Shown here in pieces: positions 554 to 4,146 of a stretch of DNA of 64,000 nucleotides. The notes beneath the pieces were generated by a model that worked only from the letters and a program-made list of their open reading frames with translations, was not told the origin of the DNA and made no database searches. Origin of the DNA: Haloactinospora alba (GTDB lineage: Bacteria > Actinomycetota > Actinomycetes > Streptosporangiales > Streptosporangiaceae); contig NZ_VFQC01000001.1 in NCBI RefSeq assembly GCF_006717075.1, forward strand, positions 1,349,501 to 1,413,500. Direction: 5' to 3'. Both the position numbers and the translations under genes were made by a program. Within the stretch, counting starts at the first letter, position 1. Every line of letters starts with the position of its first letter.

Positions 554-1456
554 GTGAGCGAGATGGGGCCGGTGCAGATGCGCAGCCCGGTGCTGAACGT
601 GCGTCGGGTGGAGGCGTACCACTCCATCACGATCGTGGCTCCGGGTATCGCCGACCGGTTCCGCCCCGGGCAGTTCATCGCTGTCGCCGTGGGTGGGGAG
701 CAGTCGAGCATGCTGCTTCGCCGACCGTTCGCGATCCATGACGTCAAACCCGACTACGGAGGGACCGTGGAGTTCCTCTTCCAGGCGCGCGGTCCCGGAA
801 CGGCGTGGTTGGCCGAACGCCGTTCCCGGGACCTGGTTGACGTGGTGGGGCCGCTGGGCCGCCCGTTCCCGCTGCCCCGGGACCCGGTGAACTGCACACT
901 CGTCGGGGGCGGTTCCGGAGCGGCCCCCCTGTTCCCGCTGGCCCAGGCCCTGCGTCGCAGGGGATGTCGAGTGGACTTCGTGTTCGGTGCCGACTCGTCC
1001 GACCACCTCTTCGGCATCATCACCGCACGCCGGGCAGCGGCGACCGTTACCTGTACCACCGAGGACGGGACGTTCGGCGAGCACGGACGGGTCACCGACG
1101 TGTTCGAACGCGTGCTGCACGAGACCAGCGCCGATGCCGTGTACGCGTGCGGCCCCATGCCGATGCTGCGTGAGGTCAGTGCGAGTGCTGCCAGGCACGC
1201 GCTCCCGGTACAGGTGTCAGTGGAAGAGTCCATGGCCTGTGGCACCGGTATGTGTATGAGTTGTGTGATTCCGGTGGTGGGGGAGGACGGCATCACCCGG
1301 ATGGTGCGCTCATGCGTCGACGGGCCGGTGTTCCGCGGGGAACAGGTGCGTTTCGACGATGCCGGAACGATACCGTTCGACGCCCTGGGCGCACCCGGGT
1401 GGAAATCCCCCGACGAGGAGACGGGCTACGGCGGCAGCACCCGCGAAGCCGGCTGA
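554..1456 (+). CDS. pyrK: Dihydroorotate dehydrogenase electron-transfer subunit
   Basis: A 300-residue iron-sulfur flavoprotein that passes electrons from dihydroorotate dehydrogenase 1B to NAD+. The order is a ferredoxin-reductase-like FAD domain with RRPFAIHD near residue 56, an NAD-binding GGGSGAAPLFPLAQ near residue 117, and a C-terminal [2Fe-2S] motif C-x4-C-x2-C starting near residue 228 (ACGTGMCMSC) with a fourth Cys about 20 residues on (VRSCVDG). Start GTG 554 was chosen because it lies 38 bp after carB and opens the conserved N-terminus. Its normal partner pyrD is 1.7 kb downstream because an IscB element sits between them. All cofactor residues are present. Confidence 0.93.
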   Translation: MSEMGPVQMRSPVLNVRRVEAYHSITIVAPGIADRFRPGQFIAVAVGGEQSSMLLRRPFAIHDVKPDYGGTVEFLFQARGPGTAWLAERRSRDLVDVVGPLGRPFPLPRDPVNCTLVGGGSGAAPLFPLAQALRRRGCRVDFVFGADSSDHLFGIITARRAAATVTCTTEDGTFGEHGRVTDVFERVLHETSADAVYACGPMPMLREVSASAARHALPVQVSVEESMACGTGMCMSCVIPVVGEDGITRMVRSCVDGPVFRGEQVRFDDAGTIPFDALGAPGWKSPDEETGYGGSTREAG

Positions 1457-1472: not shown

Positions 1473-1489
1473 GCCTCCTGGCAGGAGGC
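1473..1489 (+). terminator. Short hairpin just after pyrK
   Basis: GCCTCC-TGGCA-GGAGGC forms a 6-bp stem 16 bp after the pyrK stop. It could attenuate read-through into the IscB element, or belong to the upstream part of the element's RNA. No U tract follows. Confidence 0.35.
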
Positions 1490-1507
1490 GAGGAGTAGGG
1501 CAGCCAA

Positions 1508-1569
1508 GTAACGGGTTCCCCCGCCTGAAGGCGGGGGCTTTCACCCCGCGAGTGAAGGTCCGCCGTTAC
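1508..1569 (+). ncRNA. Candidate omega-RNA segment: three-way junction upstream of iscB
   Basis: Three stems fit together. An outer stem pairs GTAACGG (1508-1514) with CCGTTAC (1563-1569). Hairpin A is CCCCCGCC-TGAA-GGCGGGGG (1518-1537). Hairpin B is 1538-1544 paired with 1552-1558 (CTTTCAC with GTGAAGG, one G.U pair). Hairpins A and B are adjacent, giving a compact three-way junction. IscB loci are known to encode the guide-carrying omega-RNA immediately 5' of the nuclease gene, so position and fold match. The guide would lie at the RNA's 5' side, before about 1508. The real RNA ends and its extension towards or into the coding region are not determined. Confidence 0.5.
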
Positions 1570-1602
1570 CAGCACTAGCCAACATGAAGGGAGGTGACCC
1601 CG

Positions 1603-3141
1603 TTGGCTACGTTCCACACAGGACCACAGACCCACCAGGCCGTGCCTCCTCAGCGGCCTGCTCTGGAACCCGACCCAGCAGACACCCCCGGGAACAGGGA
1701 CGAAACGGGGGTCGGGCGCCACGACGCACCCGGTGTGGAACATGTGCGAGAGGAGACCCCCGGTGCTGCACCTGGCGCCGGGGGCGCCACCCCCGCCCCC
1801 TCCGGGGTCGGGGAGCAGCCGCGTGAGCGGCACCCCTGCGTCATGGTGCTCGACGCCCACCACCGGCCGTTGCAACCGTGCCACCCTGCTCGGGCGCGCA
1901 CGCTGTTGGCCAAGGGCCGCGCGGTGGTGCACCGCCGTGTTCCGTTCACGATCCGGCTGAAGGACCGCACCGTCGCCGAATCCGACGTCGATGGGGTCGA
2001 GGTCGGCGTGGACCCGGGATCGAAGCACACCGGGCTGGCCGTGTTCACCGCCCAGGGTGGCCAGCGCCGCGGCCGGTTCGCCCTCCGGCTGGACCACCGG
2101 GGCGCACAGATCCGAAAGAAGATGGGGCAGCGCTCCGCCTACCGGAGTCGCCGCCGGACGGCCAATGTGCGCTACCGCGCCCCTCGGTTCAACAACCGAG
2201 CCCGAGCCGAGGAGTGGTTGCCCCCGTCGCTGCGTCATCGGGTTGATACGACCGTGTCGTGGGTGGTCCGGTTGTCCCGGTGGGCGCCGGTGCGGCAGGT
2301 ACACGTGGAACGCGTCGCGTTCGACACCCACGCCCTGTCCGCCGGACACCCGTTGGAAGGCAGGGAGTACCAGCGCGGCACCCTGCACGGTTACGAGGTC
2401 CGCGAATACCTCCTGGCTAAGTTCGGCCGGGCCTGTGTCTACTGCTGGGCGGTGCACACCCCGCTGAACGTGGACCACGTCCACCCCAAATCGCGGGGTG
2501 GGTCCGACCGGGTGTCCAACCTGGTGCTGGCCTGCATCCGCTGCAACCAGACCAAGGGCGAGAAGCCGGTGGAAGAGTTCGCCCCCGCAGCCGCACCACA
2601 CATCCTGGCCCGGGCCAAGACGCCCTTGCGCGACGCCGCCGCCGTGCAGTCCAGCCGGTGGGCGCTGTGGCGCGCCCTCGATGCCCGCCTGCCCGTGCGC
2701 ACAGGTTCGGGGGGTCGCACCAAGTACAACCGCACCCGCAACCACCTGCCCAAGACCCACACCCTGGACGCGTTGTGCGTGGGTGAAACCGGCGCTGTTG
2801 CTGAGGTTGTGAACCGGATGTTGGTGGCCGCCTGCACCGGGCGCGGCACCCACGCCCGCACCCGGTGCGACAAGCACGGGTTCCCCCGGTTGCGCCTACC
2901 GCGCACCAAGACCTTCTTCGGATACCAGACCGGTGACCTTGTCCGTGCGGTTGTGCCCGCCGGGAAGAAGGCCGGAACCCACAGCGGCCGCGTTGCGGTG
3001 CGTGCCAAAGGGGTCTTCAACATCACCACCGTCCACGGAACCGCTAAAGACATCCACCACCGCTACGTCCGCCTGTTGCAACGGGCAGACGGATACGCCT
3101 ACACCATGAGAAAGGAGGAAGCGGCTTCCTCCCCGGCCTGA
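1603..3141 (+). CDS. iscB: RNA-guided endonuclease IscB (RuvC + HNH, Cas9 ancestor family)
   Basis: Predicted 512-residue RNA-guided DNA nuclease. Order from TTG 1603: a Pro/Gly-rich extension (1-80); the N-terminal RRXRR/PLMP-type domain (about 81-125, VLDAHHRPLQPCHPARAR); RuvC-I with Asp137 in GVDPGSKHTGLAVF; an Arg-rich bridge-helix region (about 165-195); RuvC-II with Glu236 in VERVAFD; an HNH domain with CVYC (278), VDH (His292) and CIRC (311); RuvC-III with His386 and Asp389 in HTLDALC; and a basic C-terminal region. Every expected catalytic and zinc residue is visible, so it looks active. TTG 1603 was chosen for the strong Shine-Dalgarno AAGGGAGGTGA (1587-1597) 5 nt upstream. GTG 1594 overlaps that site. 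ATG 1843 would give the core 432-residue protein. The stop codon lies in the loop region of the 3' terminal hairpin. Confidence 0.9.
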   Translation: MATFHTGPQTHQAVPPQRPALEPDPADTPGNRDETGVGRHDAPGVEHVREETPGAAPGAGGATPAPSGVGEQPRERHPCVMVLDAHHRPLQPCHPARARTLLAKGRAVVHRRVPFTIRLKDRTVAESDVDGVEVGVDPGSKHTGLAVFTAQGGQRRGRFALRLDHRGAQIRKKMGQRSAYRSRRRTANVRYRAPRFNNRARAEEWLPPSLRHRVDTTVSWVVRLSRWAPVRQVHVERVAFDTHALSAGHPLEGREYQRGTLHGYEVREYLLAKFGRACVYCWAVHTPLNVDHVHPKSRGGSDRVSNLVLACIRCNQTKGEKPVEEFAPAAAPHILARAKTPLRDAAAVQSSRWALWRALDARLPVRTGSGGRTKYNRTRNHLPKTHTLDALCVGETGAVAEVVNRMLVAACTGRGTHARTRCDKHGFPRLRLPRTKTFFGYQTGDLVRAVVPAGKKAGTHSGRVAVRAKGVFNITTVHGTAKDIHHRYVRLLQRADGYAYTMRKEEAASSPA

Positions 3142-3150
3142 AGGCCGGGG
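3114..3150 (+). repeat. Right-end tandem hairpins of the IscB element
   Basis: Two mutually exclusive hairpins overlap by two bases: GGAGGAAG-CGG-CTTCCTCC (3114-3132) and CCCCGGCC-TGAA-GGCCGGGG (3131-3150). The iscB stop TGA (3139-3141) is formed by the TGAA loop. GCGGC (3121-3125) can also pair with GCCGC (3156-3160) around the second hairpin. This is the expected look of an IS200/IS605-type end. Confidence 0.6.
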
Positions 3151-3201
3151 TACCCGCCGCAAAAATTTGATGGCAACCGGACCGTTCAGGGCGGAGCGGT
3201 A

Positions 3202-4146
3202 GTGAGTACTGATCTGCGAACACGGTTGGGGCGGCTGGAACTGGCCAACCCGATCATGACGGCGGCGGGGTGCGCCGGTACCGGAAGGGAACTGGCGCGG
3301 TTCGTCGACGTCGCCCAACTCGGAGCGGTCGTCACCAAGTCAGTGACGCTGGAACCCCGAGCCGGGCACCCCGCCCCCCGTATGGCGGAGACACCCAGTG
3401 GCATGCTCAGCGTCACCGGAATGCAGGGTCCCGGTATCGACGTGCTGCTCGAACGGGACGTGCCGTGGCTGCGGTCCCAGGGGAGCCGTGCGGCGGTCTC
3501 CATCGGAGGCGGAAGCGCCGCGGAGTACGCCGAACTGGCCAGACGGATCTCCGGCGCCTCCGGCGTGAGCATGATCGAGGTGAACCTGTCGTTCCCCAAC
3601 CCCACCGGGCGGGGACAGGACTTCGCCGATGACCCCGAGGAAGCCGCGCGTGTCGTACACGGGGTGCGTTCGCACGCGCGTTCCGACATTCCGGTGTTCG
3701 CGAAACTGGCACCGGACGTTCGGAATGTGGTCGAGCTCGCTCGGGCGTGCGTGGACGCGCGTGCGGACGGATTCTCCCTGGTCAACACCGTGCGCGGTAT
3801 GGTCATCGACCCGGGAAAACTGCGTCCTGCCGTCTCCGGTGGCGGCGGTGTCTCCGGTCCCGCCATCCGGCCGTTGGCGGTCGCGTGCGTCTACAACGTC
3901 CATGCCGCGCTGCCCCGGGTTCCGATCATCGGTATGGGGGGAGTACGTACCGGTTCGGATGTGGTGGAGTTCCTCGCGGCGGGAGCGTCAGCGGTCGCGG
4001 TGGGAACGGTGAACTTCGCCGACCCCTCCGCCTGTGCCCGGATCCTGCGTGAGCTGACCGAGGCTCTTGACGAACACGGAGTGTCGTCCCCAGCGTCACT
4101 GGTGGGGGCGGCGCACCGCTCGGCGCGAGTGGACGCCGAACAGTGA
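3202..4146 (+). CDS. pyrD: Dihydroorotate dehydrogenase, class 1B catalytic subunit (catalytic Cys replaced by Phe)
   Basis: A 314-residue FMN TIM-barrel enzyme oxidising dihydroorotate to orotate, partnered with PyrK. Family marks are NPIMTAAGCAGTGREL near residue 14, LSVTGMQGPGID near 70, and the FMN phosphate site GMGGVRTGSDVVEFLAAGAS near 247. In class 1 enzymes the loop after the fourth strand reads N-[IL]-S-C-P-N and its Cys is the catalytic base. Here it reads VNLSFPNPTG, with Phe131 (codon TTC, 3592-3594) at the Cys position. TGC to TTC is a single-base change. The rest of the protein looks intact and the frame is clean. Start GTG 3202 follows GGCGGAGCGG. Activity needs testing before it is assumed. 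Confidence 0.9.
   Translation: MSTDLRTRLGRLELANPIMTAAGCAGTGRELARFVDVAQLGAVVTKSVTLEPRAGHPAPRMAETPSGMLSVTGMQGPGIDVLLERDVPWLRSQGSRAAVSIGGGSAAEYAELARRISGASGVSMIEVNLSFPNPTGRGQDFADDPEEAARVVHGVRSHARSDIPVFAKLAPDVRNVVELARACVDARADGFSLVNTVRGMVIDPGKLRPAVSGGGGVSGPAIRPLAVACVYNVHAALPRVPIIGMGGVRTGSDVVEFLAAGASAVAVGTVNFADPSACARILRELTEALDEHGVSSPASLVGAAHRSARVDAEQ

What the first reader, a model, noticed from the sequence alone, without database searches (positions are those of the whole stretch)
1508..3160. Complete, apparently active IscB RNA-guided nuclease lodged inside the pyrimidine operon
Seen: a gene with all IscB domains and every expected catalytic residue (RuvC Asp137, Glu236, His386/Asp389; HNH His292; paired CxxC) sits between pyrK and pyrD in the operon's direction, flanked by terminal-type hairpins and without a Y1 transposase. 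Known: IscB proteins are the Cas9-ancestor nucleases of IS200/IS605-type elements and use an omega-RNA encoded just upstream. Inference: this is a recent insertion expressed from the pyr promoter, using a trans-acting transposase.
Basis: partly seen in the sequence, partly recalled or inferred. Interest (0 to 1): 0.75.

Follow-up and report, generated by a model that had tools for sequence, protein, structure and literature searches.

The report
IscB element with start codon in guide RNA
An intact RNA-guided DNA-cutting gene (IscB, a relative of Cas9's ancestor) has inserted between two pyrimidine-synthesis genes, and comparison with about 80 relatives suggests that these elements usually land exactly on the start codon of host genes and carry their own start codon inside a stem of their guide RNA.

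Summary
Window 1508-3169 is a complete 1662-bp IscB element between pyrK and pyrD, with intact RuvC/HNH residues, terminal hairpins and no transposase gene. Its omega-RNA (Rfam HEARO) lies at 1508-1761. In 24 relatives pyrK and pyrD adjoin without an IscB, so it is a real insertion. 'Recent' is unsupported: the genome's only other intact copy is 87.7% identical, though the nuclease core evolves under purifying selection (dN/dS 0.23).

(1) Elements end at ATGA/GTGA/ATGG, and 50 of 61 (82%) sit exactly on a host gene's start codon (dnaN, era, uppS, ruvA, hisA) versus 15% of control ATGA sites. Half carry a Shine-Dalgarno at that end. The window copy (ATGG) lies 32 nt upstream of pyrD's start. 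(2) The IscB start codon lies inside a 7-9 bp omega-RNA stem with the Shine-Dalgarno in its loop (74 of 76 loci), and start-codon changes are compensated on the other strand. The nuclease frame thus overlaps its guide RNA, unlike in four proteobacterial relatives.

The mechanism (homing at start codons, self-regulated translation) is inferred, not shown. Verdict: new variant of a known kind.

The parts
1508..3169 (+). whole IscB element (1662 bp), left end GTAACGGG, right end AAAAATTTG
   Evidence: Ends shared with the second copy at C1:2021449-2023112; precise ends by homology with L080, whose joined flanks align without a length gap to uninterrupted relatives
1488..1507 (+). predicted guide segment (GCGAGGAGTAGGGCAGCCAA), host DNA directly 5' of the omega-RNA scaffold
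   Evidence: Position only; guide length is an assumption
1508..1761 (+). omega-RNA scaffold (Rfam HEARO RF02033)
   Evidence: 71.7 bits, E 6e-14, below the gathering score of 83; two of 12 relatives pass gathering; 38 of 53 consensus pairs show compensatory change among 45 loci
1518..1537 (+). left-end hairpin CCCCCGCCTGAAGGCGGGGG
   Evidence: sequence; hairpin pairs covary
1577..1608 (+). omega-RNA stem-loop AGCCAAC (1577-1583) / GTTGGCT (1602-1608) with the IscB start codon in the 3' arm and the Shine-Dalgarno in the loop
   Evidence: stem of 7 bp or more in 74 of 76 loci versus 1.4% of displaced controls; first base of the start codon pairs T-A 36, A-T 36, C-G 2, G-T 2
1590..1597 (+). Shine-Dalgarno GGAGGTGA
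   Evidence: conserved in relatives
1603..3141 (+). iscB coding sequence from TTG 1603 (first in-frame start GTG 1594)
   Evidence: lengths of the N-terminal extension in relatives vary but stay multiples of 3
3131..3150 (+). right-end hairpin CCCCGGCCTGAAGGCCGGGG; its loop holds the iscB stop codon (3139-3141)
   Evidence: sequence
3170..3173 (+). predicted TAM / insertion-site tetranucleotide ATGG (ATGA in most relatives)
   Evidence: 66 right junctions: ATGA 58, GTGA 5, ATGG 2, ATGC 1
554..1456 (+). pyrK, intact
3202..4146 (+). pyrD, intact

Best explanation
This is a transposase-less IS200/IS605-type element that encodes an apparently functional IscB nuclease and its omega-RNA. A Y1 transposase supplied in trans probably inserts such elements 3' of TCAT/CCAT (read on the other strand), that is, directly 5' of ATGA/ATGG. 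The host sequence left of the element becomes the guide and ATGA/ATGG acts as the TAM, so IscB can cut only an element-free copy of the same site, which recombination then repairs with the element (homing). Because the TAM contains ATG, elements that survive selection mostly sit between a host gene's ribosome-binding site and its start codon; in one subgroup the right end supplies a replacement ribosome-binding site. Within the element, the IscB start codon lies in an omega-RNA stem and its Shine-Dalgarno in the loop, so folding of the guide RNA and starting translation should exclude each other, possibly as a negative feedback. Shown: anatomy, empty site, insertion motif, start-codon enrichment, covariation, purifying selection. 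Inferred: cleavage, homing, the trans-acting transposase, the feedback.
For: IscB identity and catalytic residues. HEARO at the left end with strong covariation. pyrK-pyrD adjacent without IscB in 24 relatives, the one closest in spacing 79 nt versus 82 nt reconstructed here. Insertion without duplication or loss: joined flanks of L080 align at 177 nt over 177 nt. Right-junction tetranucleotides ATGA 58, GTGA 5, ATGG 2, ATGC 1 of 66. Start-codon position 50/61 versus 206/1330 control ATGA sites, odds ratio 25, p 2e-28. Of 20 downstream proteins tested 19 match known families, most from near residue 1: dnaN, ruvA and sdhB from residue 1, also uppS, era, hisA, ispE, hom, guaB. Shine-Dalgarno-like 4-mers in guides 35/58 and right ends 29/58 versus 13-15% in flanks. 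Start-codon stem. Core dN/dS 0.15-0.36 between 14 pairs of copies. TnpA/TnpB elements L203 and L204 carry the same terminal sequence, also beside an ATGG that is a likely host start codon.
Against: No activity was measured. In the window the ATGG is 32 nt upstream of and out of frame with pyrD's GTG, so this copy is near, not on, a start codon. Four relatives with three or more IscB matches have no detectable Y1 transposase. Codons 1-55 show no amino-acid-level selection (third/first-second ratio 1.04), so translation from TTG 1603 rests on the Shine-Dalgarno, start codon and frame conservation only. The start-codon enrichment partly reflects selection against insertions inside genes. Some loci hit the same gene and junctions were picked by eye, so the p value is optimistic.
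Confidence: 0.75

Rival explanations
1. IscB is translated from an internal start near VMVLD (about 1840), as public annotation of such genes assumes; the open frame over the omega-RNA is incidental and the omega-RNA is an ordinary leader RNA.
For: Codons 1-55 show no codon-position bias. The S. canus plasmid gene is annotated from an internal start. A published screen re-set N-terminal insertions to downstream starts (PMC13180657).
Against: Every locus with a located start has an extension that is a multiple of 3 although lengths vary widely (258-363 nt). GGAGGTG plus NTG is conserved, with only ATG, TTG or GTG and a compensating 5' arm. No Shine-Dalgarno is visible near the internal start.
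Confidence: 0.17
2. Start-codon landing is only survivorship: elements insert at any ATGA, but insertions inside genes are lost, and surviving sites are mostly start codons.
For: The TAM contains ATG; one clear intragenic insertion survives (L080 in an aldehyde dehydrogenase gene). Nothing here separates targeting from selection.
Against: Replacement Shine-Dalgarno sequences at the right end (29/58 overall, 17/18 in the GTCA type) look like adaptation to start codons, and essential genes are hit. This rival is compatible with the homing part of the best explanation.
Confidence: 0.4
3. The pyr copy has been domesticated to regulate pyrD, as nuclease-dead TnpB relatives regulate genes.
For: Intact and under purifying selection since divergence from the second copy; located in a biosynthetic operon.
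Against: Catalytic residues are intact; the position is not shared by any of 24 relatives with pyrK-pyrD; the guide has no other good match in the genome.
Confidence: 0.05

Closest known systems
IscB / HEARO (OMEGA) elements of the IS200/IS605 group
   Same: PLMP-like N-terminal motif, split RuvC, HNH, HEARO omega-RNA at the left end, guide from the left flank, terminal hairpins, usually no adjacent TnpA (also reported in PMC9755519)
   Different: The start codon and about 55 codons lie inside the omega-RNA; four proteobacterial relatives examined have the coding sequence after the omega-RNA
OgeuIscB, HfmIscB, TbaIscB (solved structures)
   Same: aligned catalytic motifs
   Different: Distant in sequence; OgeuIscB starts at the PLMP region. 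Other IscBs recognise TAMs such as NTAAA or NWRRNA-like motifs (PMC13180657); here ATGA/ATGG is predicted
TnpB and its omega-RNA in IS605 elements
   Same: guide RNA overlaps the nuclease coding sequence; homing model (PMC11870625)
   Different: The overlap is at the 3' end in TnpB (established knowledge), at the 5' end with the start codon in a stem here

Membership tests
IscB RNA-guided endonuclease | NCBIfam guided_IscB above its cut-off | tested here: met
   407 bits versus cut-off 175
IscB RNA-guided endonuclease | Intact RuvC I-III and HNH catalytic residues | tested here: met
   D140, E239, H295, H389, D392 invariant and aligned with solved IscBs
IscB RNA-guided endonuclease | HEARO omega-RNA at the left end | tested here: met
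   E 6e-14 but below gathering in the window; above gathering in L115 and L138; covariation
IscB RNA-guided endonuclease | RNA-guided DNA cleavage | not testable with these tools
   needs a biochemical assay
IS200/IS605-type mobile element | Insertion next to a fixed short sequence without target duplication | tested here: met
   ATGA/GTGA/ATGG at 65 of 66 right ends; L080 joined flanks align without a length gap
IS200/IS605-type mobile element | Subterminal hairpins at both ends | tested here: met
   1518-1537 and 3131-3150
IS200/IS605-type mobile element | Mobilised by a Y1 TnpA | tested here: inconclusive
   none in the element; Y1 matches at four places in the genome; similar end beside TnpA in L203/L204; no Y1 in G299, G264, G313, G146

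The most novel reading that the evidence does not exclude
In actinomycetes the omega-RNA is also a translation switch: its stem holds the IscB start codon and its loop the ribosome-binding site, so IscB bound to its guide RNA would shut off its own synthesis. The same elements use host start codons as their TAM and replace the host ribosome-binding site, which lets them sit in front of essential genes.
Probability: 0.4. Interest if true: 0.8.

Novelty: new variant of a known kind. Interest (0 to 1): 0.6.

Why it matters
If true, it shows how a homing nuclease element can persist in front of essential genes (by landing on start codons and bringing a ribosome-binding site) and how a guide RNA and its nuclease can be regulated by one shared RNA fold. 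It also implies that public IscB annotation in actinomycetes may start too far downstream, which matters for anyone expressing these proteins. The predicted ATGA/ATGG TAM is directly testable in vitro.

Tried and rejected
Rfam at gathering level misses most of these omega-RNAs, so covariation was used. The first left-end finder was wrong and was corrected. For the start-codon stem, MAFFT gaps shift the first base of the start codon in part of the rows, so that base pair was counted per locus instead. A search for further genomic targets of the window's guide gave only hits with 2-3 mismatches, fewer than the reversed-pattern control. Literature: Altae-Tran 2021, Meers 2023 and Kapitonov 2015 are not held; searches for IscB with start codon, N-terminal extension or Streptomyces found no report of either feature. 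From memory, not checked: an ATGA TAM was reported for AwaIscB in 2021. Chance, domestication and a dead copy were considered and rejected on the evidence given.

Full report
What is there. Window 1508-3169 is a 1662-bp element between pyrK (554-1456) and pyrD (3202-4146), in operon direction. It encodes an IscB (NCBIfam guided_IscB 407 bits; RRXRR and HNH in Pfam). Numbered from GTG 1594, D140, E239, H295, H389 and D392 are invariant in seven relatives and align with the catalytic motifs of solved IscBs. A HEARO omega-RNA starts exactly at 1508 and runs to 1761 (71.7 bits, E 6e-14, below the Rfam gathering score). Hairpins lie at 1518-1537 and 3131-3150.

Insertion and ends. The genome (4.94 Mb, 4 contigs) has one other intact copy at C1:2021449-2023112, 87.7% identical over the element, and several short pieces carrying one or both ends. 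In 24 relatives pyrK and pyrD are adjacent (gap -11 to 166 nt, one 556 nt) with no IscB match at the locus; the reconstructed gap here is 82 nt, against 79 nt in L022. For L080, inserted in an aldehyde dehydrogenase gene, the joined flanks match uninterrupted relatives over 177 query and 177 target bases, so nothing is duplicated or lost and the element ends directly before ATGA.

Where such elements land. One scan found 439 relatives, 80 kept, all from actinomycetes. Of 66 elements with a clear right end, the next four bases are ATGA 58, GTGA 5, ATGG 2 (both copies of this genome) and ATGC 1. Each element was removed in a script and the site classified: 50 of 61 are the start codon of a coding ORF, versus 206 of 1330 ATGA sites in the flanks (odds ratio 25, p 2e-28). 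Several sites hit the same genes and the junctions were picked by eye, so p is optimistic. The downstream proteins match family profiles from near residue 1, for example dnaN 1-366, ruvA 1-200 and sdhB 1-244, also ispE, hisA, uppS, era, hom and guaB. Shine-Dalgarno-like 4-mers occur at -16 to -5 in 35/58 guides and 29/58 right ends, against 13-15% in flanks, and in 17/18 right ends of the GTCA type. In the window the ATGG lies 32 nt before and out of frame with pyrD's GTG, so this copy is close to, not on, a start codon.

The start codon inside the guide RNA. In 76 loci with a located start, the NTG start lies in the 3' arm of a stem whose 5' arm is AGCCAT, AGCCAA, AGTCAT and similar, with GGAGGTG in the loop; 74 have 7 bp or more, against 1.4% of displaced controls. 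The first base of the start codon pairs T-A 36, A-T 36, C-G 2, G-T 2, and the +4 base C-G 61, T-A 11, T-G 4. RNAalifold on 45 loci gives 53 pairs, 38 with compensatory change, several inside the reading frame. The extension before the PLQP motif varies in length but is a multiple of 3 wherever a start was located. Third-position change is not raised in codons 1-55 (ratio 1.04), slightly in the rest of the extension (1.36) and clearly in the core (3.03): the overlap is constrained as RNA, while the frame is kept. In four proteobacterial relatives HEARO ends before the annotated coding sequence, and the S. canus plasmid gene is annotated from an internal start.

Selection and mobility. Core dN/dS between 14 pairs of copies is 0.15-0.36 (0.23 for the two copies here), so the nuclease has been maintained. 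IscB occurs in 51 of 299 family genomes, up to six matches in one. Y1 genes are undetected in G299, G264, G313 and G146, which carry three or more IscB matches. In L203 and L204, TnpA/TnpB elements begin CCAT|CAAAT, the reverse complement of this element's right end ATTTG|ATGG, and bring GGAGGATTTG before an ATGG that opens a reading frame on the other strand. This makes trans-mobilisation by such a TnpA plausible, not shown.

Verdict. The novel content is the start codon inside the omega-RNA and the landing on start codons. Neither was found in the literature held, but key papers are not held.

Noticed in passing
L003, L004/L007, L005, L006 (own genome): Short pieces with the left and/or right end of the element and most of the middle missing, in the manner of MITEs; L006 and L055 (another genus) lie before the same gene (ATGAACTTCCTGCTCGACGAGGTC).
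   Followed up: partly
G299, G264, G313, G146: Genomes with three or more IscB matches and no detectable Y1 transposase.
   Followed up: no
L203:1312-1447 and L204:1290-1440: TnpA/TnpB elements inserted antisense before a host ATGG with a Shine-Dalgarno in their left end, the mirror image of the IscB right end.
   Followed up: partly
L055 (G029) and G080 contig C25: IscB frames with the middle (RuvC/HNH part) deleted but both ends kept.
   Followed up: no
window 3170-3202: After the element, ATG 3170 opens a 10-codon frame whose TAG overlaps pyrD's GTG; possibly a leader peptide.
   Followed up: no
L087 and L089 (hisA), L106 and L145 (ispE), L122 and L135 (guaB): Different species carry an element before the same gene: repeated targeting or shared ancestry.
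   Followed up: no
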